This document shows positions 20,750-48,751 of a DNA stretch of 64,000 nucleotides, one piece after another. The notes under the pieces were generated by a model. The model made no database searches and was not told the origin of the DNA. It was given only the letters and a program-made list of their open reading frames with translations. Source of the DNA: Populus alba (lineage: Eukaryota > Streptophyta > Magnoliopsida > Malpighiales > Salicaceae). The position numbers and the translations under genes were made by a program. Each line of letters starts with the position of its first letter. The stretch's first letter is position 1. Where the stretch lies: NCBI RefSeq assembly GCF_005239225.2, contig NC_133297.1, positions 19,952,147-20,016,146 on the forward strand. Direction: 5' to 3'.

Positions 20750-21300
20750 CCTTTCACATGTCACACTTCTGAAATAGTATGAATTAAGCCATCATACATC
20801 TTTAATTTGATGGTGCCAATACCAGCAATCTCTAAAGCATGATCATTACCCATGAACATTGAGCCTTCACAGATGGGTCACATGTATGAAATCAATCTCG
20901 ATTAGGAGTCGTATATCATGTTGCTTTTGAATCCATTAACCAAGTCTCAGTAAGCTATTTTTTATCTGTAGAGACTGTCGCTGCTTCACTATATAAAACC
21001 TCCCCATCTTCTGAGGTACTTGCAACACATCCTTAAGGTTTTGATAACTCTACAATATTCTCTATAACCTTTTTAAACCAACAATCCCTTTTGAAGTGGC
21101 CTTTTCTACTACAGTTGTAGCATTTCACAGTCTTCTTACTTCTTGATTTGGACCTCCCTTACATTTGACTCCCATTAGAGCCACGCTCTGTTGATCTTCC
21201 TCTTTGACATCAACAATGCCTCTGCTTGGTTTGAACTATTTCTGTCTTTTTTGTTTTTTCGCTTATTTTCTTCTTTCAAATAGTAGCTATAACATCATCA
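20750..21300 (-). pseudogene. Copia gag zinc knuckle and protease (fragment 2)
   Basis: On the minus strand, CYNCSRKGHFKRDC (near 21090-21135) is a complete CCHC zinc knuckle, which binds the genomic RNA. It is followed lower down by a protease stretch homologous to 16458-16670 with FMGNDHALEIAGIGT-type text (20820-20860). Small indels relative to fragment 1 break the frame. It would join onto the integrase at 20740. Confidence 0.75.
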
Positions 21301-25150: not shown

Positions 25151-25602
25151 GGAAGAAATCAAGGATGAAAAAGGCACCAAAAATGTTGTTGCGGATCATT
25201 TGTCAAAATTGACAATAGATTCGACATACGACATCACACCAATCGATGATTACTTTCCTGATGAATCTTTACTTTCTCTTCGTTCAAAAAAATATCAATT
25301 TTCTTACTTCAGGATTTTTGCCAGCTCATTTGGATAACCAAGACAAAAGAAAGTTTTTGAGTGATGCCAAAACTTTTATTGGGATGACCCTTACTTATTC
25401 AAATATTGTCTTAATCAAATATTTCAAGGATGTATTCTAGACAATAAGGTAAGTAGTGTTATTAAATTTTATCACTCTAAGGCATGTGAGGATCATTTCT
25501 TATAAAAAAACGACTGCAAAAATCTTACAAAGTGGATTTTACTGACCCACCATGTTCAAGGACTCACATGCATTCTGAAAAACCTATGAAAATTGTTAAA
25601 AT
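25150..25602 (+). pseudogene. RNase H tail and integrase start of element A
   Basis: After KGTKNVVADHLSKL come DDYFPDESLLSL, then a broken stretch with LPAHLDNQDKRKFLSDA and [14 protein letters not shown] in shifted frames. Next is the zinc-binding start of integrase (HSKACEDHF and FKDSHAF-KTYENC). At about 25615 the frame leaves integrase and enters the extra ORF, so the DDE core is deleted. Confidence 0.75.
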
Positions 25603-25614
25603 GTGGGATTTATT

Positions 25615-25840
25615 TCAAAACATAAAGAGTCTTTAGATAATCTTCTATTCACTCTTAAGTCTCATCATAGTGGAGATGTGAATCGTGCAATTCATGATTT
25701 ATGGCCCAATTTTCATAAAGAACATGCTAATCATAGTCTTGGGTATCTGACTAAAAAAAGACCATGTTTGTTAGTTTTTAAGAAAACTAGATGGGAAGCC
25801 TATCCCCGACCCATACTCGTGTTTAAGCCGTTCTTGGACA
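25615..25840 (+). pseudogene. extra ORF (ORFx) remnant in element A
   Basis: Translation KESLDNLLFTLKSHHSGDVN, then RAIHDLWPNFHKEHANHSLGYLTKK, matches the second half of the 192-residue ORF of element B (39462-40040). The first half, including the cysteine cluster, is lost with the integrase core. See the B copy for what can be said of function: none is known to me. Confidence 0.8.
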
Positions 25841-26056: not shown

Positions 26057-26708
26057 ATGGTAGGATCCTCAGCTATTAAAATAAAAAATATTTGTGTTTT
26101 TTGTGGATCTAGTCCTAGGAAAGAAAAAGAGTTTATAGAATTCGCAAATCATCTTGGTCAGATACTAGCTGAGAGAAAGATTGAGTTAGTATATGGGGGA
26201 GGAAGCTTGGGTTAATGGGGAGTGTGTCAACAGTTGCATTCTTAGGAGGAAGTCAAGTTTTGGGGGTCGTCCCCAAAGCTTTAGCAAAAGGGGACATCAT
26301 TGGAAAAATAATTGGAGAAGAACTACAGGTCTCCACAATGTCTGATCGAATGAATACAATGTTTAAACACAATGATGCCTTCATTGCCTTACCAGGTGGT
26401 CTGGGCACATTAAAAGATATATTTCATATTTCCTTTTGGGCCCAACTGCACATTCACCATAAACCTATAAGTTTGCTAAATGTTAATGGTTTTTATGATA
26501 ATTTATTGTCTTTTCTTGATCAAGCTGTGGAACAGGAATTTCTAACATCTTCGGCATGATAAATCATAATCTCTACTGCTACTGCTGAACAATTGATTGA
26601 CCAACTACAATCTTTCATCCCTGTAATTGATCCCTCTATGAGTCGCATAAATTGGTCAACTAAGGAAAGCCGTAAAAAGCTTAGATTGGATTTGAGTCTT
26701 CATTTGTG
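26057..26708 (+). pseudogene. broken LOG-like cytokinin riboside monophosphate phosphoribohydrolase in A
   Basis: Starts MVGSSAIKIKNICVFCGSS and matches the intact copy in element B over its whole length. Compared with B, one base is lost in the GGGSLG block near 26207, which shifts the frame and gives an immediate stop. From 26215 the frame reads on as VSTVAFLGGSQVLGVVPKAL to FLTSSA, where two adjacent arginine codons have become TGA and TAA (about 26557-26562). The catalytic motif reads PGGLGTLKD instead of PGGLGTLEE, so the motif's last glutamate is changed as well. The cysteine of ICVFCGSS, usual in LOG proteins, is kept here but is glycine in B. Clearly dead. Confidence 0.9.
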
Positions 26709-27097
26709 AAACCTTGTGTCTTTTAGTTTTATTAATAGCTTATTATTTTGTTTTGTTATTTCTTATATTTGTTTAAGTGTGTTTCAGGTTTATCATTGTT
26801 CGTTGTTTCAGGTGATGTCTTCTATACTCTATCTTTCTGCCCTAGAACATTAAGGACAATGTCTTGTTTTGGTTGGGGGGGGGGAGGGTAGTAGATGACA
26901 TTAAAAAAAAAACTAACTAACTGCTTTTGTTTTTAATAAAACCATTTAACAAAACTGTTATTACTAGGATGATAGAGTAAGGGAGAATTTTATTTACTCT
27001 TGAGATGCATCTTAGTAAACATTTTCCAATGGTTATTTGCAATATTCATAACAAGGTCTATCACATTCTTCTCTTGAAATATTCAGGTTTACAAACT
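26709..27097 (+). other. 3' untranslated part of element A
   Basis: Matches the minus strand of 38190-38550 in element B. It includes the phrase TTAAGGACAATGTCTTG and a G tract (about 26872-26886), a feature often seen near the 3' end of Athila-type elements. The match to B stops at 27097 with Copia element C. Confidence 0.7.
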
Positions 27098-27362: not shown

Positions 27363-28556
27363 ATGGAACAACCACCACATACATCTTCAAATTCTGCAGC
27401 ACCAGCAGTCCAGCTTTCTTCTTCTCCGACAGTGCACCCCTCTTCTCTTGCAGCGCCTCCTCTGCTTTCCTTTGCTGCGTCACCGCTTGGATTCTCCTCT
27501 ACCATGGCTGGTGAACGCCTCCTTTTGCAGCCCACGTCTGCTGCCTCTACTGCCGCAAGCATTATCTCCCTTTCTCACACTCATCAAGTCACCTCCCTCA
27601 AATTAACAAACACCAATTATTTATATTGGCGTATGCAGATGCTGCCTTATCTCCTAGGCCAAAGAGTTTTTGGTTTTGTTGATGGCTCCAACACATGTCC
27701 ATCAACACATGTTCTTGCCCATGATGGTATCTCTCTTCAGGAAAATCCGCTTTTTCAAACCTGGAAACAACAGGACCAACTCATTCTAAGTGCTCTTCTT
27801 TCCTGCCTATCTATGGAAGTTTTGAATCTTGTTGTTGGCTGTCAAAGTTCTTGTTCAGGTTGGGGCACTTTTGAGCGAGCTCTTGCTTCCACCTCCAACT
27901 CTCGTATTATGCAACTTCACGGCTCTCTTCAGGATCTTCGACAGGATGATGAATCAGTAACTCAATTCATGCAAAAAGCGAAGGCCTTATTTGATGAATT
28001 GGCTGCTGCTGGTCGGCCAGGTTCGCTTGAAGATTTAAATTTATATGTGTTTTGTGGTCTTCGGGGAGAGTTTAAAGACTTAGTTACTAGTCTTATTACC
28101 AATGTTGAACCTTTATCATATGCAGATCTTCACAGCCATCTCCTCAAACATGAATTTCTTCACAAATCTTCTGCTGCCATACATGCTCCTCTGCTGCCCA
28201 CACCCAACATTCCATCTCTGCACTTGTTGCGTAGCGCCAGACTTTTGGCAATTCTGGCCGCAGTAGGGGCCACTTCAACGGTGGCTAGCGTCCCAACCAG
28301 TCCAACATCAGAGGCAACCAATTTGCTGGCTCCAGACCTGATCACCGCAGCTTCCAAAACTCCTCCTTCGGTGACAATAGGCAAGGCTCTTGGCAGCGCA
28401 ATAGGGGGCAGAATCCACGCTGCCAACTATGTCAGAATTTCGGCCATACAGCTCCCCATTGCCCTCAATTCCAGCAGCGAGGTTATGTCCAACAACCTAC
28501 TGCCAACCTGGTGCAGCCTAATCTCTCCTCAACCGGTTCTATTGATTGGTTTCTAG
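27363..28556 (+). pseudogene. Copia gag of element C
   Basis: Starts MEQPPHTSSNSAAPAVQLSS at 27363, 50 bp after the primer site. The Ale-type gag block follows: VTSLKLTNTNYLYWRMQMLP and later the ASTSNSRIMQLHGSLQDLRQ block. The zinc-knuckle part after residue 260 is read in another frame: the translation becomes low-complexity and the frame shifts before protease. The long open frame to 28556 is therefore partly out of register. The protein would form the particle core. Confidence 0.8.
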
Positions 28557-29290
28557 ATACCGGTGCCAATCAACACGTCACACCTGATCTTGCCACCTTG
28601 ATCGCTTCAGAACCGTATCTTGGTAATGATAATTTGCATGTTGGTGATGGTAAGGGCCTTCCTATATCTCATCTTGGTCATACAAAAATATATATAAACC
28701 ACATCGTTCTTTCACCTTATCTAATGTTCTTCATGTTCCTGCAATCACGAAACCTCTGCTCTTTGTTCAGAAATTTTATCTTGATAATAATGTTTATTTT
28801 GAATTTCACCCTCGTGTGTTTTATGTCAAGGATTTCAACACCCATGAAGTCCTTCTCTCAGGTCAGAGTAAAGATGGTCTCTATGCCCTGACCAAGTCTT
28901 CCGTCACGTCAGTTCCTCAAGCTTATTGATCTCCCTGCACTTCTGCTTCTGCCGATTTATGGCATCGTCGACTAGGTCATCCTACTTCACGTATTTTTCA
29001 ATTGTTAATCTCGAAAAATAAGATCATTTGTAACAACAAACGTCTTAATTTTCAATGTCAAAGTTGTCCTTTAGGAAAATCATCGCGTTTGTTTTTAGGA
29101 CCTACGGGTCACAAAACTTCTGCTCCACTTGAATTAATTTTTAGTGATGTATGGGGCCCTACTCCTTTTTTTTCTTCAGATGGCTATCGTTATTTTGTTA
29201 TCTTTGTTGATGCTTATACTAAATATGTATGGTATTATCCTCTCGTTGCCAAGTCTGATGTTTACTCTGTTTTTCATCAATTTTAGACTC
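28511..29290 (+). pseudogene. Copia protease and integrase N-terminal part of element C
   Basis: 28511-28690 reads GSIDWFLDTGANQHVTPDL; DTGA is the protease active site and is intact. After frameshifts, 28950-29286 reads LWHRRLGHPTSRIFQLLI, with CQSCPLGKSSRL, the HHCC pre-integrase block. It is followed by DVWGPTPFFSSDGYRYFVIF with the first catalytic aspartate region. A TAG at 29284 stops the frame. Confidence 0.85.
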
Positions 29291-30565
29291 TTGTCGAACG
29301 TCAATTTTCATTAAAAATAAAATCTGTTCAAACTGACTGGGGCAATGAATACCAAAAACTATCCATATTTTTTTCAAACCATTGGTATTCATCATCGTCT
29401 GATTTGTCCCCACACTCATGAACAAAATGGAACAGTAGAGCGTCGTCATAGGCATATTGTGGAAACAGGTCTTACTCTTTTAGGGCAATGTAAAGCACCT
29501 TTTCGATTTTGGAATTATGCTTTTGAAACCTCTGTTTATCTTATAAATCGCATGCCTATTCCTATTCTTGCCCATCGCTCTCCGTTTGATTGTTTATTTC
29601 AACGGTCTCCTGATTATTATTTTTTGCGTACCTTTGGGTGTCTCTCTTTTCCTTTTCTGCGTCCATATAATAATCATAAATTGGATTTTTGTTCCTCTCC
29701 ATGTGTGTTTTTTAGATATAGTTCCTCGCATCTTGGTTATCGATGTCTTGACATTGCATCTCACCGTATTTATATTTCTCGTCATGTCCGCTTCCATGAA
29801 CATGTGTTTCCATTTGATAATTCTGAACAGATTGCAAAGATCTCAACCACAACCCCCACCCCACCCGCTACTGTCACCCTCCCAAATTTGCTAAACCACC
29901 CACCGCCACCCACTTTCACTAGCCACCCAAACAACCTACAACACTCCACTTTGCCACTCCAAACAGCCACCCGACCACAGCCTCCACCCATCCCTTGGCC
30001 ATCATCCCATGCTTGTTTATCTAACCCTTATGATGCAGGTTCAGATCATCAATTGGTCTCCTCTCCTCATGGTCTTGGGGCACTTTCTAGTCCCTCCTCT
30101 GCTTCGCCCTCGCTGGCCAGCACTCCTGCAGCTTCAGTCTCTACTTCCAGCCCCTCCTCTGCTGACAGTCCTGTGCTTAAGGCTGCTTCTTTATCATCCT
30201 CTCCCGCTGGTCTGCAACTTATGGTTGATTTGTCTTCTTATCAGCTGCCACAAGTCTCCTCGCTACAACCATCTTCCCCTGCGTCTCCACCAGCACACAG
30301 CAGACATCCTATGACTCTTAGACCGCAGCAGCCGAAGACAGCTAATCTAGTTGCTTCCGCTACCGCTACTTCTACCTCCACATGGGTACTGTATTCTCCC
30401 TCTTCTGAGCCTTTTTCATTCTCTGATGCTGACCGGTATGCAGTTTGGCATAATGCTATGTGTGATGGTAGTATTGAGCGCTATAAAGCGCACCTTGTTG
30501 CTAGAGGTTTTACCCAACAGGAAGGTATTGATTATTCTGAAACCTTCAGTCCAGTTATTAAGTAG
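29290..30565 (+). pseudogene. Copia integrase C-terminal part of element C
   Basis: From 29320 the frame reads [10 protein letters not shown] (second catalytic aspartate), and from 29345 a 406-codon open stretch includes [20 protein letters not shown] (third catalytic residue region). Then come [19 protein letters not shown] text and FSGYRCLD-type text, and a long proline/serine-rich spacer. The end ([20 protein letters not shown]) is the start of reverse transcriptase. An internal deletion removed about 35 residues between WHNAM and DGSIERYK, judged against the copy at 61887-62360. TAG at 30563 ends the frame. Confidence 0.85.
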
Positions 30566-30985
30566 GCCACTGTCCGATTGGTTCTCTCTATCGCGGTTTC
30601 GCGAAGTTGGAAGATTCATCAGCTTGATATTCATAATGCCTTCCTCAATGGTGTTCTTACTGAAGAGGTCTACATGAAACGACCTCCAGGTTTCGTTGAC
30701 TCTTCTCTTCCATCTCATGTGTGCAAATTGCACAAATCATTGTATGGTTTGAAACAGGCACCGAGAGCATGGTACACTCGTCTAAGTGATTTTTTGCTCT
30801 CCATCGGTTTCCAAGCTTCCAAGGTTGACACCTCCCTGTTTATCTTATTTGATGGTACTAATATCTTTTATCTCCTGGTGTATGTTGATGATATTCTGCT
30901 CACGGGTAGCAACTCTGCTATGCTCCATCACCTTATACAGTTACTCAGCTTTGAGTTCAAGCTTCGTGACTTAGGTCCTCTGATT
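30566..30985 (+). pseudogene. Copia reverse transcriptase of element C, truncated
   Basis: Open stretch with [40 protein letters not shown] and LVYVDDILLTGS. The YVDD catalytic motif is intact. The text ends at FKLRDLGPL, where Copia should continue with HYFLGIEV; instead it runs into LINE sequence. It would copy RNA into DNA; this copy lacks the thumb and RNase H. Confidence 0.9.
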
Positions 30986-30994
30986 TATATGGCA

Positions 30995-33948
30995 CTCCCA
31001 TGTATCTTCTGTGTCGCAGGCTGAAGTATCTTAAAAGACCTCTTAAGGAGCTTAACCGGTTACACTTCCAGCACATCTCTGAATGTGTTACTCACCTTGA
31101 GACTGAATTGGCGGCTCACCAATTATCATTGCAGCATGATAAAGACAATTACCATTTATTGGAGCAAGAAAAGCTTCTTAGATCAAAACTCTCACATTTG
31201 AAATTTGCGGAGAAACAATTTTTCAGCTAAAAGATCAAATGCAATTTTCTCAAAGAAAGTGATAGAGGTTCCAAGTTCTTTCATGCACTGATGAATCATA
31301 ACCATCACAGGAATTTTATTCTAGCCATTAGGACATGCCAAGGTCATCGAACCTCCTCCTTGGAAGAAATTGGAGACGTCTTTGTTCATTATTTTCAACA
31401 GCAACTTGGCTCATCCAATCCCACTACCCCGCTTGATAGTGAGGTTATTCAAAGCGGTCCATGTCTTTCCCTTGATTCTCATGCCTTTCTACTCTCCCCA
31501 GTCACTCCTGATGATATTCGCAAGGCAGTTTTCAGTATTGGGGATGACAAAGCTCCTAGTTCGGATGGATATTCCTCATGCCTTTTCAAACGTGCCTGGC
31601 ATATAGATGGGGAAAATTTCTGTGATGTTATTCAAGATTTCTTCCTCTCTGGTCGACTCCTTTGATAGGTTAATCACTCCATCATTGCCTTAGTCCCTAA
31701 ATCAGCCCCTGTCACATCCCCATCTGATTTCAGACCCATTTCTTGCTGCAATGTAATTTATAAGGTCATTGCAAAGATTCTGGCTGGTAGACTAGCTCAT
31801 GCACTTACTGATATTATCCGCCCTTTGTAAAATGCTTTCTTAGGTGGACGCTTTATGAGTGATAACAACAATCTTGTCCAAGAGCTGCTCTGAACTTATG
31901 GCAGGAAACGTTCTTCACCTAGCTGCCTGATGAAAGTGGACTTTAGGAAAGCATTTGACTCTGTTCAATGGAGTTTTCTTGAAACTCTTCTTCTACAGCT
32001 TAGGTTTCCAAATCAGTTTGTCTCCCTTCTCATGCAATGTGTCTCCACTGCTTCCTACTCTATTGCTGTAAATGGTGATATCCATGGATTTTTTCTAGGC
32101 CAAAGTGGTGCCCGACAAGGGGATCCTTTATCCCCATATCTATTCATTTGTTGTATGGAATATTTTTCCAGGATGCTTAAACTAGCCTCCCAACATGTAG
32201 GATTTCGGTTCCACCCTAATGTCAGTCTCAAGGGCTTACACATCTTGCTTTCGCAGATGACATCCTCCTTCTTTCACGGGGTGATACTTCTTCTGTCAGG
32301 TGCCTTCTCCAGTAACTTCACCTCTTCGGTCAAACTTCAAGGTTGATTATAAATCCTTAAAAATTTTCTATATTTTTTGGTGAAGTCAGGGATGCTCACA
32401 GACAAGCCATACTTGCTGAATCAGGCTTTAGGGAAGGAATTTTCCCATTTACTTATCTAGGGGTTCCCTTGAGTCCCCACAGGTTACTAGCTAGTCAATT
32501 TACTCCTCTATTAAATGCCTTGGAGTTGACAGTTCAAGGCTGGATTGGTAAGCATCTCTCGTATGTTGGTCGCCTTGAGCTTTTTCGAACTGTGCTTTAT
32601 GGCAAAGTTCACTTCTGGCTAAACATATTTCCTATGCCAGAAGTTGTTCTCCACAAAATCACCAGCATCTGCCGGAATTTTTTATGGACAGGTTGGAGGC
32701 ATGGTTCTGCTCTAGTTGCATGGAAATTTCTCTGCCTACCTAAAAGGGAAGGAGGTCTTGGCCTCTTTGATCTTAGAGCTCGCAACAGAAGTTTTCTTGC
32801 TAAGCAACTTTGGAATCTTCATCTTAAAACGAATTCGGTTTGGATTCGTTGGGTGCATCACTATTAGTTGTGCAATACTGAACTCTGGACTATTCAACTC
32901 AATCAGCAATCCTCCCCATTGTGGAAATCCATCCTTTTTATTCAGGATCTCATTTCCCAACATAGTGGCAGTGTAAGCGCAAGTGTTCAGCTGATGACCA
33001 GTTGGTCTTCAAGTCCAGGCCTCTTCCTAGCTCATGCCTATCAATTCTTTAGGCCAGTGGGCGCTCCTATTTCATGGCATCGGGTGGTTTAGGAGTAATA
33101 GTCCTTGCCCAAGTACAACTTCATTTTATGGTTGGCTACTTTGGGAAAATTACACTCCTATCAATCACACTCGAGATCGATTAAAATTCATCCCTATTGA
33201 CCTCACATGTGTTTTTTGTAGGCGTGAGGAAGAATCCCACAGGCACCTATTCTTTCTCTGTGGATGGCCACACCAACTGTGGTCTAGGATCACAGCCTGG
33301 TTAGTGATATCTAGGGTTATGAACTCCTTGTCAAGTGCACTTCGCTCGTTTCACCAAAGAAAAAGAACATGACTTATAGAATGAGAAGGGTGTCACTAGG
33401 AATAGTGGTTTACTTAATATGGGAGGAGCAGAATCGCAGAAATTTTTATGGAAATTCAAGAGATGTCAGTATAGTCTTTAGGAAATTCCAAGTCTTGTTC
33501 TACACCATCTTCCACTTTCATGAGAGGGATCACTCCTTACTATAATTTATCTAAGTAGAGCTTCTGTTTTCGTGGCTTGAAGTCTCTGGTTCTTGGCAAA
33601 TTCCTTCAGCTCCGGTATTACATGTATGCATGCCCCATGCATACCTTGGTGGTTCTTTTTGTCTTTTGCTAGAGGGCCTGCGTGCTATAGGCCAGCTTTC
33701 TTTTGTATTTACATACTTGTCCTGTGTAAATGGTCATGTTGCTTGGTTTCATTTTGCTTGGTTATCCTTGGCACCTATAGTTTTTGGGTTCCTAACATAA
33801 CCAAGGCTTTGGTATATTTGTATTATTCTCATGCGCTTCTAGGAGCCTGTTTCCATAAGCTTGTTCTGTACAGATGTTTCTCTGTTGCTGGTCATCCAGC
33901 TTGTTTATATTTTGATATATAAATTCTTACATTTCAAAAAAAAAAATA
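30995..33948 (+). mobile_element. 5'-truncated LINE (L1-like non-LTR retrotransposon)
   Basis: Carries a reverse transcriptase, a zf-RVT-like C-terminal block and a 3' untranslated part ending in an A run at 33938-33948. The endonuclease is missing, as usual for a truncated LINE. The left edge abuts Copia reverse transcriptase, but Copia sequence does not resume after the A tail, so the junction is more than a simple insertion. No clear target duplication was found. Confidence 0.85.
31000..33400 (+). pseudogene. LINE reverse transcriptase ORF2 remnant
   Basis: Read in pieces: 31291-31665 (GDDKAPSSDGYSSCLFK), 31690-31830 (PSDFRPISCCNVIYKVIAKIL), 31930-32240 (MKVDFRKAFDSVQWSFLETL, then GARQGDPLSPYLFICCMEYF). 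The catalytic FADD box (LAFADDILLLSRGD) is at about 32240-32285 but in a shifted frame, so one frameshift lies just before it. 32469-32867 is the thumb-like part (FLWTGWRHGSALVAWKFLCL). 33130-33350 holds CVFCRREEESHRHLFFLC, a zf-RVT zinc-binding block. Several stops are present. This enzyme would reverse-transcribe at the nicked target. Confidence 0.85.
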
Positions 33949-35452: not shown

Positions 35453-35706
35453 TGACACGACCAAAAGATTGATGTCTTCTTCCAAGTGCAAGAGTGTCGA
35501 AGTAATAAAAAACTCAGCAAGACCGGGGTCGAACCACATGGAGGTGAATTATATAAAATTATAAACAACAAATGAAAAGGAGTTGAAGAGAACTTTTGAG
35601 ATGTGATATTGGTGTGAGTATTAATCAAAGATAAAAGCAATTGTCAAGGTTAGAGGATCCACTAATAGTATTAGAAATAAGTATAGTATAAACTCTTTTT
35701 ATTAAC
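35453..35706 (-). repeat. LTR of gypsy element D, left part
   Basis: Begins TGACACGACC, the minus-strand end of this LTR family. It is interrupted at 35706 by insertion of element B and continues at 47454. Together the two parts make an LTR of about 1.55 kb. Confidence 0.9.
35702..35706. other. target-site duplication of element B (left)
   Basis: TTAAC, repeated at 47454-47458 on the other side. When joined across B, the sequence is a continuous LTR of element D. Confidence 0.9.
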
Positions 35707-35976
35707 TGACACGACCAAAAGCTTGATGTCTTTTCCCAAGTGCAGGAGTGTCGAAGTAATAAATAACCCGGTAAGACCGGGGTCGAACCACAGAGAGGTT
35801 AATTGTATAAATTATAAATAACAACACAACAATAACAATAACAATAATAATAACAATAGTAGTACTAGTACTAGTAATAATAATAATAATACTCAGTACG
35901 TGGCGTTGTTATACCTGAGAATGATCTAAAAGATCGGGTCACAGGTTTCCAGCCTATATACTGAGTTTATGAACAG

Positions 35977-36019
<43 letters not shown>

Positions 36020-37327
36020 TAACAATAACAACAATAATAATAAAGAAGAGAAGGAAGAAATTAATGAGAACTTTGAGTTGAAAGATTAATGTAAGGATTA
36101 AACAACGATAAAAATAAATGTCAAGGTTAGAGGATCCACTAATGGTACTTCAAACAAGTATAGTATAAACTCTTATTACTCAATTGGAAACCACACATAA
36201 AGGAGGTTCCCATCAGATTATAAATTGTTAACATGATTACATTAGTTATCTTATTCGAATAAAGCTAATACTTGTAAATGTTGACAGGCATTCATGATTA
36301 TAACTTATGTTAACAACAAATCAAGTCCCTTTCATAGCTCAGGTGTCGGTTATACCATACAGTATGGGCTATGAAAGTACCAAGTATTTGTTGTACCAAG
36401 TGTTATACAACATAAATCTAGACTAACCATTTAACAAGCAAAGTATTAAAAGTGAACAAGATAACAAATATAAAACATGTTAGTATCCAACGTTAAGGTC
36501 CATGTTAAGTTTATATTATACTTATTCTTACACCATTAGTGTACCCTTTTCACCTTGACATAATTAACTTAGCTAAACATAATGAAAGAAAGAAACATAG
36601 ATGAACAAGATAAGAACATAAATGAGAAAGAAGTTAACTAAGTAAAGGAAAGGAAATGAAGTGCATAAACTTGATATTAATGAAAGCAAAACATAAGCAA
36701 TACAAAGAGAGAAAGCAAGAGCATGATCTTGATCTGAACACCAAGATGCCTCAATACATGGTAAGTGCCTCCTTTTATAGGCCAAAATTTGGAACTATTG
36801 ATTTGTTGACTAATTGATGAGTGGGTGGCCACATCTTGACTAGATAACAATCCTTATCTTCTTGTCTGATCAAGACGTCATTGCTAACATCATAATTTGC
36901 CCAGAATCCTCAAGAATGTTCTAGGAAATTGTCTCAGCTTTCCAACAAAAAAAAGATGAGGTCATTTGGACTTCTAGAACTCAAGATATGGGCTGAACAC
37001 TAAATAGTGTTTGGGCTGCAGGACAGCTTCGGACTTCTTCGTTGTTCCTTCAATTTGGACTTCAAAACGACCTTTTCAAATCTTGGGATCCTCATGAAAG
37101 TTTGGCCATCTCTTTGTCCTTTAACTTTCAATGCTTAAACTCATCAATCAATCCTTTTATTTATGTGATAGTCCTGCATTTAAAATGAGCATTTACCTTA
37201 AATTAAGGTATCTTATAATATCAAACTTGTTATTATAAAACATGCTTTAGTTAAGGAGTTATTGATACTTCAAGTGCAAAATGATGATATAAAACCTTGA
37301 TAAACATGCACTTTTAAGTACTAATCA
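35707..37327 (-). repeat. 3' LTR of element B
   Basis: Read on the minus strand it starts TGATTAGTACTTAAAAGTGC at 37327 and ends GGTCGTGTCA at 35707. Compared with the 5' LTR it lacks about 125 bp near 37110. It contains a TATAAAA box (minus strand, 36773-36779), a TAA/AAC microsatellite (35820-36045) and the 74-bp insert at 35892-35965. CACCCCCC at 37326-37333 is the purine tract on the minus strand. Confidence 0.95.
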
Positions 37328-38550
37328 CACCCCCCAACCAGCTTGTTACTAGTCCCTAGTAATCTAAACCGTTAAAATAGAGAAACAATTTGCAAGTTCC
37401 ACAAAGCAAGGCATTCATCATTCAACTTCCATTAATCTATCCAGATAAACAAACTCTCATTAAATTTATATTCCTGCTTCATACTTCGTAAACAAGATAT
37501 TAATAAACCTTCTTTTTGTGTACTCAATGAAAACATAGATGATGGGGCTTTTGTTGGAAGAAAACAATATTATGTTCAAATGTTTAAGGTGAACTTCCTT
37601 GGGTTGGGATTTTTTTTTCTTCTTTTTTTTTTTTTTTTTATTTATATACACATACAACTTAAAACACAATGTATCTTTAACCCATGTAACGAGTTTTAGG
37701 CTAATGACTCCCAGACCAGTTGGTCTTAGGGCATTAGGTGTTGAGACACCCCTACGAGCTTAACAACTCGGGTTACAGATACTGATACGTAGATAGTGCA
37801 ATGTTTGATTCCCTTAAGCTTTTCTTCTTAACCCATGTAACAAGCTTTGGGCCAATAGCTCCCAAGTCAGTTGACTTTAGGGTATTAGGTGTTAAAACAC
37901 CCCTTCGGGCTTAATTGCTTAGGTTAGGGAGGCTACGAAACCAAACTTATCCACATTTTATTATCATCAATACTATCTTCTTTTTTTTTTTTTCTCTTTT
38001 TTTTTTCTTTGCAAATTATATACTATCCTTTTCCCTTAGTTGTTACCTTCAACAAAAGAACATAATTAATGTAATAATCCAATGTGCAACCCACAATCAT
38101 ATGTTAAAGTGTGTGTGTGAAAATGAAGGTTTAATAATACTTGTTAAATGAGTATAGGAGCAGAATCAAGTGATAACAATGTGAGAGTTTGTAAACCTGA
38201 ATATTTCAAGAAGTATTATGATAGACCTTGGTAATGAAACTTACTAAGATGCGTCTCTAGAGTCAATAAAATTGATTCCATACTCTGCCATCCTAATAAC
38301 AATTTTGTCAAATGGTTTTAATAATAGCAAAAACAGTTAGCAAGTTAGTATTTTTTTTTTTTTTAAACTACTACCCTCCCCCCCCAACCAAAACGAGACA
38401 TTGTCCTCAATGTTCGAAGGTAGAAAGATAGAGTATAAAAGACATCACCTGAAACAGCGAACAATGACAAACCTGAAACACACTTAAACAAACATAAGAA
38501 GTAACAAAACAAAATAATATGCTATTAATAAAACCAAAAGACACAAGGTT
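37328..38550 (-). other. 3' untranslated region of element B
   Basis: No ORF of interest. On the minus strand it contains GGGGGGG-rich sequence (38373-38390) after TGAGGACAATGTCTCG, a feature typical of Athila-like 3' regions. T runs lie at 37608-37640 and 37978-38005. Two related blocks of about 60 bp are at 37680-37760 and 37826-37900 (CCCATGTAAC...AGCTTTGGGC, then TTAGGTGTT-AAAACACCCC). The actual polypurine tract lies at the LTR edge. Confidence 0.7.
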
Positions 38551-39204
38551 TCACAGATGAAGGCTCAAATCTAATCTAAGCTTTTTACGGCTTTCCTTAG
38601 TTGACCAATCTAGACGACTCATGCAGGGATCAATGACAGGGATGAAAGATTGTAGTTGGTCAATCAATTGTTCAGCAGTAGCAGCAGAGATTATGATTCG
38701 CCGTGCCGAAGATGTTAGAAATTCCTGTTCCACAGCTTGATCAAGGAAAGACAGCAACTTATCATAAAAACCATTAACATTTAACAAACCTATAGGTTTA
38801 TGGTGAATGTGCAGTTGGGCCCAAGATGAAATATGAAAGATCTCTTCCAATGTGCCCAGACCACCTGGTAAGGTAATGAAGGCATCAGCATGGTTAAACA
38901 TGGTATTCAGTCGGTCAGACATTGTTGGGACCTGTAGTTCCTCTCCAATTGTTTTTCCAATGATGTCCCCAGTTGCTAAAGCTTTGGGGACAACCCCCAA
39001 AACTTGACTGCCTCCTAAAAATGCAGCCATTGACACACCTCCCATTAACCCAAGGCTGCCTCCCCCATACACTAAATGAATCTTTCTCTCAGCTAGTACC
39101 CGACCAAGATGATTTGCTGATTCTAAAAACTCTTTTTCTTTCCCAGAACTGGATCCACCGAAAACACAAATATTTCTTATATGATGACTTGAGGAACCTG
39201 CCAT
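38551..39204 (-). CDS. LOG-like: intact LOG-like cytokinin riboside 5'-monophosphate phosphoribohydrolase carried by element B
   Basis: A 217-residue ORF without introns. LOG enzymes release free, active cytokinin bases from cytokinin nucleotides, in the cytosol and nucleus. Landmarks: NICVFGGSSSGKEKEF at residues 11-26 (usual ICVFCGSS; the cysteine is glycine here), VYGGGSLGLMGG at 45-56, the MSDRLNTM helix with arginine 98, and the family motif PGGLGTLEE at 113-121 with the catalytic glutamate kept (usual PGGYGTLEE). The C-terminal half (WAQLHIHHKPIGLLNVNGFY and ITTS-type text) is typical. Length equals that of plant LOG proteins. It sits between ORFx and the 3' LTR, in the same direction as gag-pol. 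Plant LOG genes normally have several introns, so this is a processed copy. Older annotations would call it lysine decarboxylase-like. Expression and activity are unknown. Confidence 0.93.
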   Translation of the reverse strand: MAGSSSHHIRNICVFGGSSSGKEKEFLESANHLGRVLAERKIHLVYGGGSLGLMGGVSMAAFLGGSQVLGVVPKALATGDIIGKTIGEELQVPTMSDRLNTMFNHADAFITLPGGLGTLEEIFHISSWAQLHIHHKPIGLLNVNGFYDKLLSFLDQAVEQEFLTSSARRIIISAATAEQLIDQLQSFIPVIDPCMSRLDWSTKESRKKLRLDLSLHL

Positions 39205-39270
39205 TTCTACACACTTCTATATTTGATGAATATATGGGATGAGTAGAAATGAAGGGAAGGAAGAGAAGAA

Positions 39271-39277
39271 TTTATAG
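39271..39277 (-). promoter_or_regulatory. TATA-like box upstream of the LOG-like ORF in B
   Basis: CTATAAA on the minus strand, 67-73 bp before the start codon, followed by a CT-rich leader. The element A copy has the same box at the same distance, and conserved sequence upstream of it. It might act as an internal promoter; there is no expression evidence. Confidence 0.45.
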
Positions 39278-39339
39278 ATGAAAAAGTGAAAATGCAATCA
39301 TACCACCTATATGTAGGCCAGCTGTAGTCTCACAAACTC

Positions 39340-39362
39340 TCTCTCTCTCTCTCTCTCTCTTT
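39340..39362. repeat. CT/GA microsatellite upstream of the LOG-like ORF
   Basis: About 11 CT units. Element A has a much shorter GAGAGAGA run at the matching place (25924-25932), so the run expanded in B. Confidence 0.9.
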
Positions 39363-39461
39363 ATTAATTATTTATTTTGAAAAAGCATGTATGTACAGGT
39401 AGTTGTGATTGTGGCTCACATCTTCCCTTGGTTTTACGTCCAAGAACGGCTTAAATGCCCT

Positions 39462-40040
39462 CTATGGGTCGGGGATAGGCTTCCCATCCAGTTTTCTTAA
39501 AAACTGGCAAATAGGGTCTTTTTTAGTCAGATTCCCAAGACTAAGTCGATCATGTTCTTTATGGAATTGTGGCCATAAATCATGAATTACACGATGCACA
39601 TCTCCACTAGGATGCGTCTCAAGGGTCAACAAAAGATTATCTAAAGACCCCTTACTCAGGCCATCCTTAATGAATTGTATCTTATCTTCACGGTTTACAG
39701 ATACCATTCCTAAAGAACGACATGTCGTATTACAAGTCCATCTGGCACATCGATGACAGAGTTTCAGTCGTTTTGCACGACGTTTCTTTGCAAAAGTGCT
39801 TTTACCTGTTCCAGGCATGTGTGAAATGAAAGAATTGGATGACTCACCTGATAATCGAACCTTTGCTTCAATTAACCAACGGATATCTTCAGGAATTCCA
39901 TGATTCATTAACAACCTCAATCTTGCACACCTAGCACGGTAAATTTTATTAATCGCATGTGGAGGCAAAGCGGGAAAATACCTTTTCAACTTTTCAAGAG
40001 TGGTGTCCATTTTCAAAAGAGAATTAGAGAAGCGATTCAA
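39462..40040 (-). CDS. extra ORF (ORFx) of the gypsy family, 192 residues, unknown role
   Basis: I do not recognise a function. The frame starts MNRFSNSLLKMDTTLEKLKR (a second ATG at residue 11 is possible). It contains a basic stretch, KSTFAKKRRAKRLK, directly before a cysteine cluster, CHRCARWTCNTTC (C-x2-C-x4-C-x3-C), that could bind zinc or RNA, and then THPSGDVHRVIHDLWPQFHK. The basic run could be a nuclear-localisation signal. It lies between integrase and the LOG-like ORF, the place where Athila elements often have an env-like gene, but there is no signal peptide or membrane segment. Element A keeps its second half (25615-25840). Open for its full length in B. Confidence 0.75.
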   Translation of the reverse strand: MNRFSNSLLKMDTTLEKLKRYFPALPPHAINKIYRARCARLRLLMNHGIPEDIRWLIEAKVRLSGESSNSFISHMPGTGKSTFAKKRRAKRLKLCHRCARWTCNTTCRSLGMVSVNREDKIQFIKDGLSKGSLDNLLLTLETHPSGDVHRVIHDLWPQFHKEHDRLSLGNLTKKDPICQFLRKLDGKPIPDP

Positions 40041-40204: not shown

Positions 40205-41494
40205 TCAATCTTTATATATAGGATCACTCAATTCAATAGAGTCATTTTCAACCGAAAAATTGTCAAAATAAACTTTCAAACGATGCCCATTTACCTTGAA
40301 AACATTGCCATTCTTTGGATTCTCAATATCACAGGCCCCATATGGATACACATGTTTCACAATAAAAGGACCACTCCATCTTGTTCTTAGTTTTCCAGGA
40401 AATAAATGGAGTCGAGAATTATAAAGCAAGACTTTTTGACCAACATTGAATGTTTTTCTCAGTATTTTTTTGTCATGAAACTCTTTAATTCTTGCTTTAT
40501 GAATTTTTGAATTGTCATATGCATCATTTCTTATTTCCTCAAGCTCATTTATTTGCAATTTTCGCAGCTGACTAGCATCATCAAGGCTTGAATTGAAAGC
40601 TTTAATAACCCAATAAGCTTTATGTTCAATTTCCACAGGCAAGTGACAAGGTTTTCCATAGACTAGTCTATAAGGTGACATACCTAATGATGTTTTATAA
40701 GCAGTTCGATAAGCCCAAAGTGCATCATTAAGTCTTAAAGACCAGTCTTTCCTATTAGGGTTCATTGTTTTCTCCAAGATCTGTTTGATCTCCCTATTAG
40801 CAAGCTCTACTTGTCCACTTGTCTGAGGGTGATAAAGGGTGGCAACTTTATGTGTGATTCCATATTTCTTCATTAAAGACTCAAATGGCTTGTTGCAAAA
40901 GTGTGTTCCACCATCACTTATCATGGCTCGAGGGATTCCAAATCGACTTAAAATGTTTTCTTTCAAAAACTTTATCACTATTTTGTGATCATTGGTTCGA
41001 CTTGGAATTGCCTCTATCCATTTTGAAACATAATCTACTGCGACCAATATGTACAAGAAACCAAATGATGGAGGAAATGGACCCATGAAATCTATACCCC
41101 AACAGTCAAAGATCTCAATGACAAGAATAGGATTTAAAGGCATCATGTGACGTTTCGAAATAGATCCCAACTTTTGACAATTTTCACAAATCTTACAGAA
41201 TGCATGTGGGTCTTTGAACATGGTGGGCCAATAGAATCCACTTTGTAAGATTTTTGCAGTTGTCTTTCTTGATGAGAAATGACCCCCACATGCCTCAGAA
41301 TGACAAAATTTAATGACACTACTTACCTCATTGTCAGGAATGCATCTTCGAAATATTTGATCAGGACAATATTTGAATAAATAAGGGTCATCCCAATAAA
41401 AGTTCTTTACTTCGTTCAAGAACTTTCTTTTGTCTTGGGTACTCCAATGAGCTGGCAATTGTCCTGAAACAAGAAAATTAACAATATTAGCAAA
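40205..41494 (-). CDS. integrase of element B
   Basis: Same frame as the preceding pol part, separated from it only by the private TAG at 41495. It begins [20 protein letters not shown]. The zinc-binding part reads [15 protein letters not shown] and FCKICENCQ (HHCC-type). The catalytic core has [25 protein letters not shown] and [16 protein letters not shown], giving the three acidic residues D, D and E. The C-terminal part contains [20 protein letters not shown] and NGHRLKVYF, the usual end of gypsy integrases. Stop at 40205. Together with the LTR ends it would insert the element DNA. The extra ORF follows 165 bp downstream. Confidence 0.95.
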
Positions 41495-43810: not shown

Positions 43811-44536
43811 TTTCTTAACAGTGCATAGATCTTTTAAAAATTTAGCATAGGAAGGAACCTGTTTAATAGCATCCAACAAAGGTATATTGATCCTTACCTG
43901 TTTGAAAATTTCAAAGATTTCAGAGTTGTGACTAACTTTCCTTTGTTTGATCATGGCATGAGGAAATGGAAGTGCTGGCGGGGAATCAGCCTTTTCTTTG
44001 CAGTGTTCAGGTTCAACCCCTTCCTTACCCTCAGAGATAGACTCATCATCTTTCTCACAAGGTTCAAGAATAGGTTTTTCAATAACCTTACCACTACGAA
44101 GAGTGATGACTGATTTGACTTGATCCATGTGTTGGCTTCCAGAACTACTTGCATTTGCATTGTATTGCCCCTTTGGATTTTGCTGTGGTTGAGAAGAAAA
44201 CTTACCTTTCTCTTGGAAACTGAGAGCAGATGTTAATTTTGCAAGAGCATCTTTAAAATCGGTCATGCTTTGAGCAAGTTGAGTGTTGATTGTCTCCTGC
44301 TTTTCAATGAATGCATGCAATGTTTCCTCAAAATTTCTTCTAGGAGGTGGAGCATAAGGAGGTGCATATCCATGAGAATTTTGGAAATTATGGTGTGCTT
44401 GAAACGGTGGATGTGAAGTTTGTGCATTGTTGCTATCACTCTTCCAACTAAAATTTGGGTGATTTCTCCAACCAGGGTTATATGTTTGTGAGTATGGGTT
44501 ATGGTTGGGTCTTTGGAAACTGTTTAAAGCATGGGC
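43808..44536 (-). CDS. gag of element B, C-terminal part after a private stop
   Basis: Continues the gag frame after the TAA at 44537. The text includes NSHGYAPPYAPPPRRNFEET, then EKQETINTQLAQSMTDFKDA, the LRSGKVIEK block, a charged stretch (KDDESISEGKEGVE) and FKQVRINIPLLDAIKQVPSY-AKFLKDLCTVKK. It ends at TAA 43808-43810, a stop found at the same place in E and F. In Athila-type polyproteins this segment leads straight into protease, so the part up to here is the gag-protease linker. Confidence 0.85.
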   Translation of the reverse strand, partial: AHALNSFQRPNHNPYSQTYNPGWRNHPNFSWKSDSNNAQTSHPPFQAHHNFQNSHGYAPPYAPPPRRNFEETLHAFIEKQETINTQLAQSMTDFKDALAKLTSALSFQEKGKFSSQPQQNPKGQYNANASSSGSQHMDQVKSVITLRSGKVIEKPILEPCEKDDESISEGKEGVEPEHCKEKADSPPALPFPHAMIKQRKVSHNSEIFEIFKQVRINIPLLDAIKQVPSYAKFLKDLCTVKK

Positions 44537-45466
44537 TTATTCATGGAGGCATTCCTTGAAAGAAGGCAAAGTTGGACAATCATTGGTTGCATGCTCATTT
44601 GTTTCACAGATTTGACACACAATGTCTTTAACAGATTTTAATTGACCACTCTTTTTTAATTCTAGTGCCTCGACTTTTCTAGCTAAAGATGCAAACTTGG
44701 CTTGGAGGTCATGATCTTCCCTAAGGTTGTGCATACCCCCACTAGATGTATGAGGTTGAGTTTTACCTGGTGCCTCATAAGTACCTGTGGTGTCCCAATT
44801 TTGAGCATTTTCAGCTAGCAAGTCTAGGTACTCCATTGCTTCATTAGGGTCTTTATCTTCAAAAGTTCCATTGCACATCAATTCAACCATTTGCCTATCT
44901 CTAGGTGTTAAACCCTCATAAAAATGTGAAACCAATCTCCATGTTTCAAAACCATGATGTGGGCAAGTATTAAGCAAATCTCGATACCTATCCCAACATT
45001 GGTAAAATGTTTCTCCTGGCTTTTGAGTGAAAGTGATGATTTGTCTTTTGAAAGAGTTTGTTCTGTGAGATGGAAAAAACTTCTTTAAAAATTGTTGTTG
45101 CATATCATCCCAAGCACGAATGGATCCTGGTCTCAAATTTTGTAGCCATGTTTTAGCTTTATCTTTTAATGAAAAAGGAAAAAGCTTTAATCGAATGGTG
45201 TTCATGCTACAATTTGAGTCATTATAGGTATTACAGACCTCCTCAAATTCCCTTAAATGCAAGTATGGATTTTCTAAGTCTAAGCCATGAAAAGATGGTA
45301 AAAGTTGAATAATGTCTGGCTTAAAATTAAAATGAGATGCATCAGGAGGGAAAACTATGCATGAGGGTGCACTTGTTCTTGTGGGATTCATGTGGTCTCT
45401 AAGTGTTCTCATATGGTTATTCTCATTATTCTCATTATGAAGTGATTGATTATCTTCTTCGGCCAT
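44537..45466 (-). CDS. gag of element B, N-terminal and core part
   Basis: The chosen start is MAEEDNQSLHNENNENN at 45466, because relatives A and E begin alignable sequence there; the open frame extends further to 45592. The core reads FHGLDLENPYLHLREFEEVC and later MNTIRLKLFPFSLKDKAKTW, the retrotransposon gag block. It ends with a zinc-knuckle-like CQICETNEHATNDCPT (CX2CX4HX4C). Gag forms the particle and packages RNA. The frame stops at TAA (44537-44539) where element A has CAA, so this stop is private to B; the same frame resumes to 43808. It is the first gene after the 5' LTR. Confidence 0.9.
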   Translation of the reverse strand: MAEEDNQSLHNENNENNHMRTLRDHMNPTRTSAPSCIVFPPDASHFNFKPDIIQLLPSFHGLDLENPYLHLREFEEVCNTYNDSNCSMNTIRLKLFPFSLKDKAKTWLQNLRPGSIRAWDDMQQQFLKKFFPSHRTNSFKRQIITFTQKPGETFYQCWDRYRDLLNTCPHHGFETWRLVSHFYEGLTPRDRQMVELMCNGTFEDKDPNEAMEYLDLLAENAQNWDTTGTYEAPGKTQPHTSSGGMHNLREDHDLQAKFASLARKVEALELKKSGQLKSVKDIVCQICETNEHATNDCPTLPSFKECLHE

Positions 45467-45674
45467 ATTTTCTGAAAATGATGAGGATACCCTACAAAGT
45501 CTACCACTTAATGTACGTGACCAAACTCTCATGCACGTGTAAGAAGAGAATAAAAGCAAGAAAAGAAAATAGAAGAAAAAGAAACAAAACAAAACAAAGG
45601 AAACAAAAATAGATAAAATGAAAAGTGAAAAGAGAAAATAAATTAAATATTATAATTTATACAAGAATTTACCT

Positions 45675-45698: not shown

Positions 45699-45968
45699 TG
45701 ACACGACCAAAAGCTTGATGTCTTTTCCCAAGTGCAGGAGTGTCGAAGTAATAAATAACCCGGTAAGACCGGGGTCGAACCACAGAGAGGTTAATTGTAT
45801 AAATTATAAATAACAACACAACAATAACAATAACAATAATAATAACAATAGTAGTACTAGTAATAGTAATAATAATAATAATACTCAGTACGTGGCGTTG
45901 TTATACCTGAGAATGATCTAAAAGATCGGGTCACAGGTTTCCAGCCTATATACTGAGTTTATGAACAG

Positions 45969-46008
<40 letters not shown>

Positions 46009-47453
46009 CAACAACAATAACAATAACAACAATAATAATAAAGAAGAGAAGGAAGAAATTAATGAGAACTTTGAGTTGAAAGATTAATGTAAGGATTAAA
46101 CAACGATAAAAATAAATGTCAAGGTTAGAGGATCCACTAATGGTACTTCAAACAAGTATAGTATAAACTCTTATTACTCAATTGGAAACCACACATAAAG
46201 GAGGTTCCAATCAGATTATAAATTGTTAACATGATTACATTAGTTATCTTATTCGAATAAAGCTAATACTTGTAAATGTTGACAGGCATTCATGATTATA
46301 ACTTATGTTAACAACAAATCAAGTCCCTTTCATAGCTCAGGTGTCGGTTATACCATACAGTATGGGCTATGAAAGTACCAAGTATTTGTTGTACCAAGTG
46401 TTATACAACATAAATCTAGACTAACCATTTAACAAGCAAAGTATTAAAAGTGAACAAGATAACAAATATAAAACATGTTAGTATCCAACGTTAAGGTCCA
46501 TGTTAAGTTTATATTATACTTATTCTTACACCATTAGTGTACCCTTTTCACCTTGACATAATTAACTTAGCTAAACATAATGAAAGAAAGAAACATAGAT
46601 GAACAAGATAAGAACATAAATGAGAAAGAAGTTAACTAAGTAAAGGAAAGGAAATGAAGTGCATAAACTTGATATTAATGAAAGCAAAACATAAGCAATA
46701 CAAAGAGAGAAAGCAAGAGCATGATCTTGATCTGAACACCAAGATGCCTCAATACATGGTAAGTGCCTCCTTTTATAGGCCAAAATTTGGAACTATTGAT
46801 TTGTTGACTAATTGATGAGTGGGTGGCCACATCTTGACTAGATAACAATCCTTATCTTCTTGTCTGATCAAGACGTCATTGCTAACATCATAATTTGCCC
46901 AGAATCCTCAAGAATGTTCTAGGAAATTGTCTCAGCTTTCCAACAAAAAAAAAGATGAGGTCATTTGGACTTCTAGAACTCAAGATATGGGCTGAACACT
47001 AAATAGTGTTTGGGCTGCAGGACAGCTTCGGAATTCTTCGTTGTTCCTTCAATTTGGACTTCAAAACGACCTTTTCAAATCTAGGGATCCTCATGAAAGT
47101 TGTAGGCTTTTGTCTTACCTTTCCATCCATATAAAGTGGACCTAAATCCGAAATCTAGAGCTCCAGATATGATCCAATTACCGAGCAATGTTCCGGTTTG
47201 GACTGCACCGACATCTCTTTTCTAAGTTTGGCCATCTCTTTGTCCTTTAACTTTCAATGCTTAAACTCATCAATCAATCCGTTTATTTATGTGATAGTCC
47301 TGCATTTAAAATGAGCATTTACCATAAATTAAGGTATCTTATAATATCAAACTTGTTATTATAAAACATGCTTTAGTTAAGGAGTTATTGATACTTCAAG
47401 TGCAAAATGATGATATAAAACCTTGATAAACATGCACTTTTAAGTACTAATCA
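45699..47453 (-). repeat. 5' LTR of element B
   Basis: Full-length copy, 1755 bp, beginning TGATTAGTAC at 47453 and ending GTGTCA at 45699 on the minus strand. Same microsatellite and 74-bp insert as the 3' LTR (insert at 45884-45957). Confidence 0.95.
46771..46777 (-). promoter_or_regulatory. TATA box in 5' LTR of element B
   Basis: TATAAAA on the minus strand in GGCCTATAAAAGGAGGC, conserved in the LTRs of A (22481), E (49891) and D (48070 region). It would drive the genomic RNA of the element. Confidence 0.65.
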
Positions 47454-47458
47454 TTAAC
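47454..47458. other. target-site duplication of element B (right)
   Basis: TTAAC, the partner of 35702-35706. Confidence 0.9.
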
Positions 47459-48751
47459 CAACTAGAAACCACGCACAAAGGAGATTCCAATCGAATGATT
47501 TATCCTTAATAGTTCATTATAAAGTTTTAACATAATTATATTAATTATCTTATTTTAGTAACACCATACTTTTAAATATTGTAAGGAATTCTTGATGTTA
47601 ACTTATGTTAAAAACAAATCAAGTTCCTTTCATAGCACATGTGTTGGTTATACCATATGGTTGGCTATGAAAGTGTCAAGCATTTGTTGTACCAAGTGCT
47701 ATACAACACAAATCTAGATTAACCATTTAACAAGCAAGGTATTAAAAATTAATAAGATAAAAATGATAAGACATGTTAATAGCTAACTTTCTTGGATATA
47801 AACATTGAAGTTCATATTGAGTTTATATTATACTTATCCTAACACCATTAGTGAAACCTTTCCACCTTGACATAATAAACTTAGCTAAACATAATGAAGA
47901 AGAGAAACATAAATAAACAAGATAAGAACATAAATAAGATATAAGTTAACTAAGTATAGTAAAGGAAATGAAAAGCATAAACATAAAATAAAAATAAAGA
48001 TTACAAAATACAAAGAAAGTAAGTAATCTTAATCTGAACACCAAGATGCCTAAATGCATGGCAAATGCCTCCTTTTATAGGCCAAAATTCAGAACTATTG
48101 ATTTGATGGCTAATTGGAGTGGGTGGCCACCTCTTGACTTGATAACAATCTTTATCTTCTTGTCTGCAGAAAACATCATTGGTAACATCAGAATTTGAAC
48201 AGATAGTCTTCATGAAAGTTATGGAAAATTGTGTCATTTTTCCAACAAAAAAAGAATGAGGTCATTTGGACTTCTAGAACTCGAGATATTGGCTAAACAC
48301 TTAACAAAGTCTGGGCTGTAGGATAGATTCAGAATTCTCTTTTGATGCTAAGATTTGGACTTCCAATCAGCAGAATTGAGTCTTGTCTCTCATAAATGTT
48401 TTAGGCCTATGTCTTAGCTGTTCAACCATATAAACCAAACTGACATCCAAGATCTACAGCTCTAGATATGACACAATAACTAAATAGTGTTCCAATTTGA
48501 ATTGAATCAACATCTCTTTTCTAAGCTTAACCTTTTCTTTGTCCTTTCACTTTCAATAGCTAATCATATAATCAATCCTTTGAATTGTGAATATGCTTGC
48601 ATTTAAAATGAGCATTTACCATAAATTAAAGCTATCTTATATTATCAGACTTATTAGTATAAAACATGTTATAGTTAAGGAGTTATTGATACTTCATGTG
48701 CAAAATGATGATGTAAATTCTTAATAAAAATACACTTTTAAGTACTAATCA
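47459..48751 (-). repeat. LTR of gypsy element D, right part
   Basis: Continues the LTR started at 35453 after the B insertion. It ends at 48751 with the same TAAGTACTAATCA edge, followed by a C-rich (purine on the minus strand) tract, so it is a 3' LTR on the minus strand. It lacks the 74-bp insert seen in B. Confidence 0.9.

What the first reader, a model, noticed from the sequence alone, without database searches (positions are those of the whole stretch)
38551..39204. Intact LOG-like cytokinin-activation gene carried inside a young Athila-like retrotransposon
Element B has both LTRs and a TTAAC target duplication, and between integrase and the 3' LTR it carries a complete, intronless 217-codon LOG-like ORF with the catalytic PGGLGTLEE motif, in the direction of the element. 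A second element of the family (A, opposite orientation, different site) carries the same gene at the same place. The gene was therefore captured before at least two separate insertions and has moved with the element. A mobile gene for the last step of cytokinin activation could change hormone levels or help the element. I do not know of a description of this system, but could not search the literature.
Basis: partly seen in the sequence, partly recalled or inferred. Interest (0 to 1): 0.88.

Follow-up and report, generated by a model that had tools for sequence, protein, structure and literature searches.

The report
Poplar jumping gene carrying two helpers
A young retrotransposon of poplar (very likely white poplar) carries, besides its own machinery, an intact gene for a LOG-type enzyme (the family that makes the plant hormone cytokinin active) and, beside it, a gene for a protein likely related to plant-virus silencing suppressors; variants shared among copies suggest that selection kept both, so they likely help the element, but the enzyme's changed pocket means that its substrate may no longer be cytokinin.

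Summary
The ORF at 38551-39204 lies on the minus strand of a complete Athila-like element (LTRs 35707-37327 and 45699-47453, TTAAC duplication). It is intact, intronless and LOG-like. Element A's copy is a pseudogene. The genome matches Populus alba; its one answered search gave 1,779 first-look candidates. Of the 150 scored, 138 have no stop inside. In 38 of 40 sampled copies the order is integrase (whole or part)-ORFx-LOG-LTR, at mostly different sites: LOG is genuine cargo. That part is in print: LOG (YgdH) domains in Citrus and poplar Gypsy elements (PMC9289625).

Not found in print: (1) ORFx matches flexivirus nucleic-acid-binding proteins (PF05515, PF01623), a family that includes silencing suppressors. 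(2) Variants shared between copies show purifying selection on ORFx and LOG; singletons do not. (3) Poplar-type copies keep both catalytic residues, but three of five residues proposed to hold cytokinin's prenyl group are replaced (His to Ser/Phe/Tyr, Lys to mostly Leu/Met, Glu to mostly His). Xanthoceras relatives keep the canonical pocket. So 'cytokinin activation' is doubtful in poplar. (4) 24 of 40 copies (sampled by LOG) lack the integrase core.

The parts
35702..35706 (.). target-site duplication TTAAC, left
35707..37327 (-). 3' LTR of element B (1,621 bp)
   Evidence: 7 mismatches to the other LTR, K2P 0.0043
37328..38550 (-). 3' non-coding region, LOG to LTR
38551..39204 (-). LOG-like ORF, 217 aa, intronless
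39205..39461 (-). NABP-LOG spacer with CT/GA repeat and a TATA-like site about 70 nt before the LOG ATG
   Evidence: no more conserved between A and B than neighbouring non-coding DNA
39462..40010 (-). ORFx = NABP-like protein, 182 aa (ATG start), basic stretch plus C-x2-C-x4-C-x3-C
   Evidence: PF05515 1.8e-7 and PF01623 3.9e-6; conserved family
40208..41458 (-). integrase (zinc-binding and core domains)
   Evidence: PF17921, PF00665
41498..43801 (-). protease, reverse transcriptase, RNase H
   Evidence: the protease match, PF13650, is below its curated cut-off
43811..44320 (-). ORF between gag and pol, same frame, no Pfam hit
44540..45592 (-). gag
   Evidence: PF03732
45674..45691 (-). primer-binding site, complementary to the 3' end of plant tRNA-Asp (recalled)
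   Evidence: sequence; tRNA identity recalled, not searched
45699..47453 (-). 5' LTR of element B (1,755 bp)
47454..47458 (.). target-site duplication TTAAC, right
25591..25812 (+). remnant of NABP in element A
   Evidence: 46% over residues 96-182
26057..26709 (+). LOG pseudogene in element A
   Evidence: 1-nt deletion and two stops; dN/dS to B 0.36

Best explanation
This is a young Athila-like Ty3/gypsy retrotransposon that carries, between integrase and its 3' LTR, two accessory genes: one for a protein likely related to the nucleic-acid-binding silencing suppressors of flexiviruses, and an intronless LOG-type gene whose protein is predicted to cleave an adenine-type nucleotide. Shown: the pair (whole or in part) sits at the same place in 38 of 40 sampled genomic copies, at mostly different insertion sites, and variants shared among copies are depleted in amino-acid changes in both genes, the mark of purifying selection during transposition. 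Inferred: the first protein binds RNA or DNA and blunts host silencing of the element, or acts in the nucleus as a viral counterpart does; the LOG protein changes a nucleotide or hormone pool of the cell in the element's favour. In the Xanthoceras relatives, which keep the canonical pocket, this would be cytokinin activation. In poplar copies the phosphate, ribose and catalytic residues remain, but three of five proposed prenyl-binding residues are replaced, so the substrate has likely changed.
Against: No activity, expression or phenotype was tested. The copies compared were taken from the 150 best by similarity to the LOG protein, which favours intact LOG; a sample chosen without LOG could not be drawn. 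With variants in 2 or more copies counted as shared, the LOG contrast has p 0.07. NABP is intact in only 29 of 60 copies. LOG as a whole differs between A and B by 71 of 650 sites (10.9%), no less than the non-coding DNA beside it (40 of 379, 10.6%). The NABP model is poor (pLDDT 57), its viral Foldseek hits are not significant (best E 0.34), and its cysteine spacing differs from the carlavirus finger. LOG residues that bind the base are changed, so poplar LOG may be inactive on every known substrate.
Confidence: 0.6

Rival explanations
1. The LOG gene is an ordinary cytokinin-activating enzyme, and the element raises active cytokinin directly.
For: Both proposed catalytic residues kept (112 of 119 and 115 of 119 poplar-type proteins; 41 of 41 genomic copies); LOG fold; the 12 Sapindales-type rows of the tree (8 Xanthoceras, 1 Acer, 3 unnamed) keep His, Lys and Glu.
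Against: The His97, Lys100 and Glu125 equivalents are replaced in all 119 poplar-type proteins. In CgLOG Lys100 is also listed at the adenine site, and the authors report that alanine changes at AMP-binding residues, Ser19 excepted, almost abolish activity.
Confidence: 0.25
2. LOG and NABP are passengers with no use to the element, kept because the copies are young.
For: The sampled copies are close to one another (mean LOG divergence 2.2%); NABP is broken or truncated in 31 of 60; A-B divergence of LOG equals the flanking non-coding DNA.
Against: Shared variants are depleted in non-synonymous changes and singletons are not; near-full-length proteins persist across LOG lineages down to 55% identity.
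Confidence: 0.12
3. ORFx only looks viral: a basic stretch plus a CxxC zinc finger made by convergence.
For: Cysteine spacing C-x2-C-x4-C-x3-C, not C-x2-C-x12-C-x4-C; the Carla_C4 match ends at the finger; no significant fold match.
Against: Two curated viral families above their cut-offs, over 85 residues for PF05515; none of 7 shuffled or reversed controls matches either; 8 of the 15 viral structure hits listed are named flexivirus proteins, 6 of them called nucleic-acid-binding protein or silencing suppressor (that these viruses are flexiviruses is partly recalled).
Confidence: 0.3
4. The copies spread by segmental duplication rather than transposition.
For: 2 of 18 LTR ends run into a primer-binding site (tandem or shared LTR), and one pair shares an overlapping flank in opposite orientation.
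Against: Apart from one further 32-column match, the other flanks show no match to one another; B has its own target duplication.
Confidence: 0.02

Closest known systems
LOG/YgdH-bearing Gypsy elements of Citrus and Populus trichocarpa (PMC9289625, section 12 and passages read; Steinbauerova et al. 2011, not held, recalled as reporting two Athila-like elements similar to LOGL4)
   Same: LOG-type extra domain in a plant Ty3/gypsy element, including in poplar
   Different: The parts read say nothing of NABP, of changed pocket residues or of selection on the LOG domain
Flexivirus (carlavirus, trichovirus, vitivirus) nucleic-acid-binding / cysteine-rich proteins, PF05515 and PF01623
   Same: Basic stretch, CxxC finger, profile match over about 85 residues
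   Different: Encoded by an LTR retrotransposon, 182 aa, other finger spacing, conserved ends of its own
Plant LOG enzymes (AtLOG3 2a33, AtLOG8 1ydh)
   Same: Fold, catalytic Arg and Glu, PGGxGTxxE
   Different: About 50% identical; intronless; three of five proposed prenyl-pocket residues replaced in poplar
Orchid Gypsy elements with an AlkB-type demethylase (PMC9289625)
   Same: Retrotransposon with an accessory enzyme whose relatives also occur in flexiviruses
   Different: Other enzyme, other elements; activity shown there, not here

Membership tests
Ty3/gypsy LTR retrotransposon | two LTRs, target duplication, gag, then protease-RT-RNaseH-integrase order | tested here: met
   (protease match weak)
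Athila lineage | reverse transcriptase groups with Athila in a tree | not tested
LOG (type I) phosphoribohydrolase | LOG fold and PGGxGTxxE with catalytic Arg and Glu | tested here: met
LOG, cytokinin-activating | prenyl pocket Met-His-Lys-Glu-Trp as in AtLOG3 and CgLOG | tested here: not met
   poplar copies keep Met and Trp only; the Xanthoceras proteins listed meet it
LOG, cytokinin-activating | hydrolyses iPRMP or tZRMP | not testable with these tools
   needs an assay
Flexivirus nucleic-acid-binding protein | profile match above curated cut-off | tested here: met
Flexivirus nucleic-acid-binding protein | carlavirus C4 finger C-x2-C-x12-C-x4-C | tested here: not met
Flexivirus nucleic-acid-binding protein | fold shared with viral members | tested here: inconclusive
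Flexivirus nucleic-acid-binding protein | nucleic-acid binding and silencing suppression | not testable with these tools
   needs an assay

The most novel reading that the evidence does not exclude
A lineage of plant retrotransposons carries a two-gene host-manipulation kit: a silencing suppressor shared with RNA viruses and a LOG enzyme that, after capture, was retooled from cytokinin activation to another adenine nucleotide (perhaps a stress or immune signal), and both are kept by selection even in copies that have lost integrase.
Probability: 0.25. Interest if true: 0.88.

Novelty: new variant of a known kind. Interest (0 to 1): 0.62.

Why it matters
Extra genes in plant retrotransposons are common but seldom explained. 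Here is an abundant family with two such genes, both with signs of selection, one likely of virus type and one of known enzyme chemistry, so two plain assays could show whether a retrotransposon uses virus-like counter-defence and hormone or nucleotide chemistry. It also warns that some 'LOG' annotations in poplar (LOGL10, for example) are probably transposon genes with an altered pocket.

Tried and rejected
Segmental duplication and chance ORF were rejected. A special internal promoter for LOG was considered (TATA-like site about 70 nt before the ATG in A and B), but the spacer is no more conserved than its neighbours (13 of 106 against 40 of 379 differences), so it is left as a lead. IMG/VR scans found no relatives of LOG or NABP. 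No PDB relative of NABP (one hit each, E 0.39 and 8.9, taken as chance). The donor LOG gene was not found: in the tree (74 of the 188 LOG proteins held plus three PDB chains) the 59 rows of the cargo clade stand together (SH-aLRT 93, not starred) beside the 17 rows taken as cellular plant LOGs. That cellular set came mostly from one search, three of its rows are unnamed, and AtLOG8 sits on a long branch, so neither the donor nor a single capture is proven. Host LOG genes could not be searched. Equal contig lengths as a sign of NABP-LOG linkage in metagenomes were weak (5 exact against a mean of 1.3 and a maximum of 4 with shifted lengths). Two reviews or surveys of extra ORFs were checked by passages only (PMC7264820, PMC6317226): no mention of LOG, cytokinin or carlavirus.

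Full report
Observation. Its 217 residues match Pfam Lysine_decarbox (2.6e-38) and LDcluster4 (SLOG cluster 4), TIGR00730 and, among solved structures, best AtLOG3 (5.6e-60). It lies in a complete LTR element: LTRs 35707-37327 and 45699-47453 differ at 7 of 1,621 aligned sites plus three gaps (the longest 127 nt), K2P 0.0043, and TTAAC flanks both ends. At rates of 1.3e-8 to 2.5e-9 per site and year (recalled) that is about 0.2 to 0.9 million years. The gag-pol frame has three in-frame stops, so B may have moved with help from other copies. Element A's copy is a pseudogene.

Genome context. Contigs C1, C8 and C15 of the window's genome have exactly the lengths (54,846,348, 20,300,730 and 16,454,697) of the contigs that hold Populus alba proteins D5086_001706, D5086_017310 and D5086_028131, so the host is taken to be P. 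alba. The only answered genome search gave 1,779 first-look candidates for LOG, of which 150 were scored. Of these 150, 149 cover residues 1-217 and one 1-213, and 12 have a stop inside. These are the best 150, not a random sample. I fetched 40 of them (mostly every fourth in rank) with flanks: 38 of 40 show integrase (whole or part), NABP (whole or part), LOG and LTR in that order; in one no integrase was found, and in one the best LTR match lay elsewhere. In most loci only the first part of the LTR lies inside the fetched stretch. Of 20 of these 40 copies examined beyond the 3' LTR, the LTR end was found in 18; two run on into a primer-binding site (tandem or shared LTR), and among the other 16 the only flank matches are one inverted overlapping pair and one 32-column match to a tandem copy. 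LOG is intact in 38 of 41 copies including B, and open in 55 of 59 gap-free copies including B when 20 more were added (60 loci; L045 and L046 dropped from this count for incomplete alignment). The integrase core is missing in 24 of 40; LOG is intact in 21 of the 24 copies that classes as truncated or without integrase, but the sample was drawn by LOG, so this says nothing of how often such copies lose LOG.

ORFx. The 182-residue ORF between integrase and LOG matches Viral_NABP (1.8e-7) and Carla_C4 (3.9e-6), both above Pfam's cut-offs; at E 0.01, 50 and 46 of 57 members do so (57 of the 121 proteins held were given). Six shuffles and one reversal give no match to either (the reversal gives one unrelated match below its cut-off). 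A search returned 549 homologues, named species among the 120 listed being Populus, Xanthoceras and Acer. The AlphaFold model is poor (pLDDT 57). Its viral Foldseek hits are not significant (15 at E 10, none at 0.001), yet 8 of the 15 are named flexivirus proteins, 6 of them called nucleic-acid-binding protein or silencing suppressor. Against kinship: the cysteine spacing differs from the carlavirus finger described in PMC8839810 (passages read). [quoted passage not shown] Searches for a link between LTR elements and these viral proteins found none (full-text open-access library only; listings read, and passages of PMC9289625).

Selection. Within the sample I contrasted variants found in one copy (mostly after insertion) with variants shared by three or more copies (mostly passed on through transposition). 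LOG, 59 copies: 51 non-synonymous to 26 synonymous singletons (0.90 of neutral) against 14 to 21 shared (0.35), p 0.013. NABP, 37 gap-free copies: 53 to 15 (1.63) against 11 to 18 (0.26), p 0.0003. One shared LOG variant is a stop. Sharing thresholds of 2 and 4 give p 0.07 and 0.02 for LOG, and 0.0005 and 0.00008 for NABP. A first count on 41 LOG copies gave p 0.02 and on 22 NABP copies p 0.0002; a NABP count that held a copy with indels is replaced. For the integrase piece (13 copies) singletons and shared variants did not differ (p 0.45; both below neutral). In the 24 copies without integrase core LOG singletons are 36 to 22 and shared 7 to 11 (no test). The LOG sample was chosen by LOG protein similarity, which can depress non-synonymous counts; NABP was not chosen so. 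A against B: dN/dS 0.36 for LOG and 0.28 for gag; in a neutral simulation 32 of 5,000 runs had as many synonymous changes. Against this, overall A-B divergence of LOG (71 of 650) is no lower than that of non-coding DNA beside it (40 of 379). Across 16 deep lineages (identity 55% and up) site variability follows that of cellular LOGs (rho 0.57; 74 of 92 cell-invariant sites keep the same majority residue). A first test on 118 poplar-type proteins gave a weaker contrast (148 of 20,000 permutations as large).

Known and new. LOG in Gypsy elements of Citrus and P. trichocarpa is in print (PMC9289625 section 12, citing Steinbauerova 2011, not held; its mention of LOGL4-like Athila elements is recalled). 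Verdict: observation right, LOG capture known, neighbour and pocket new; mechanism inferred, untested.

Noticed in passing
35453-35705 and 47459-48751: B sits inside an older relative: the left flank resembles an LTR end plus primer-binding region, the right flank an LTR (78%) followed by 3' non-coding DNA, as if elements stood in tandem sharing an LTR; 2 of 18 other copies also run from the 3' LTR into a primer-binding site.
   Followed up: partly
L009-L048, upstream of NABP: 24 of 40 sampled copies lack the integrase core; most of them retain both integrase ends, with NABP (or a piece of it) and LOG: a large, apparently non-autonomous subfamily.
   Followed up: partly
27363-31024 and 60971-63870: Two related copia-type elements (68-77% alike) in opposite orientation; the first lies directly after A's LOG region, and no 3' LTR of A was seen.
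   Followed up: no
19580-20065: Tandem repeat of a 54-nt unit between two 87% alike copies of a 0.8-kb stretch (15961-16768 and 20244-21055).
   Followed up: no
P0212, P0219 (Xanthoceras): Some Xanthoceras gene models hold two LOG domains in one protein.
   Followed up: no
P0218, P0273, P0241: Genes named 'LOGL10' of P. trichocarpa (P0218, P0273) fall inside the LOG clade of these elements; that of P. nigra (P0241) was not in the tree but is 81% identical to the window's LOG. They are likely transposon genes or derived from them.
   Followed up: partly
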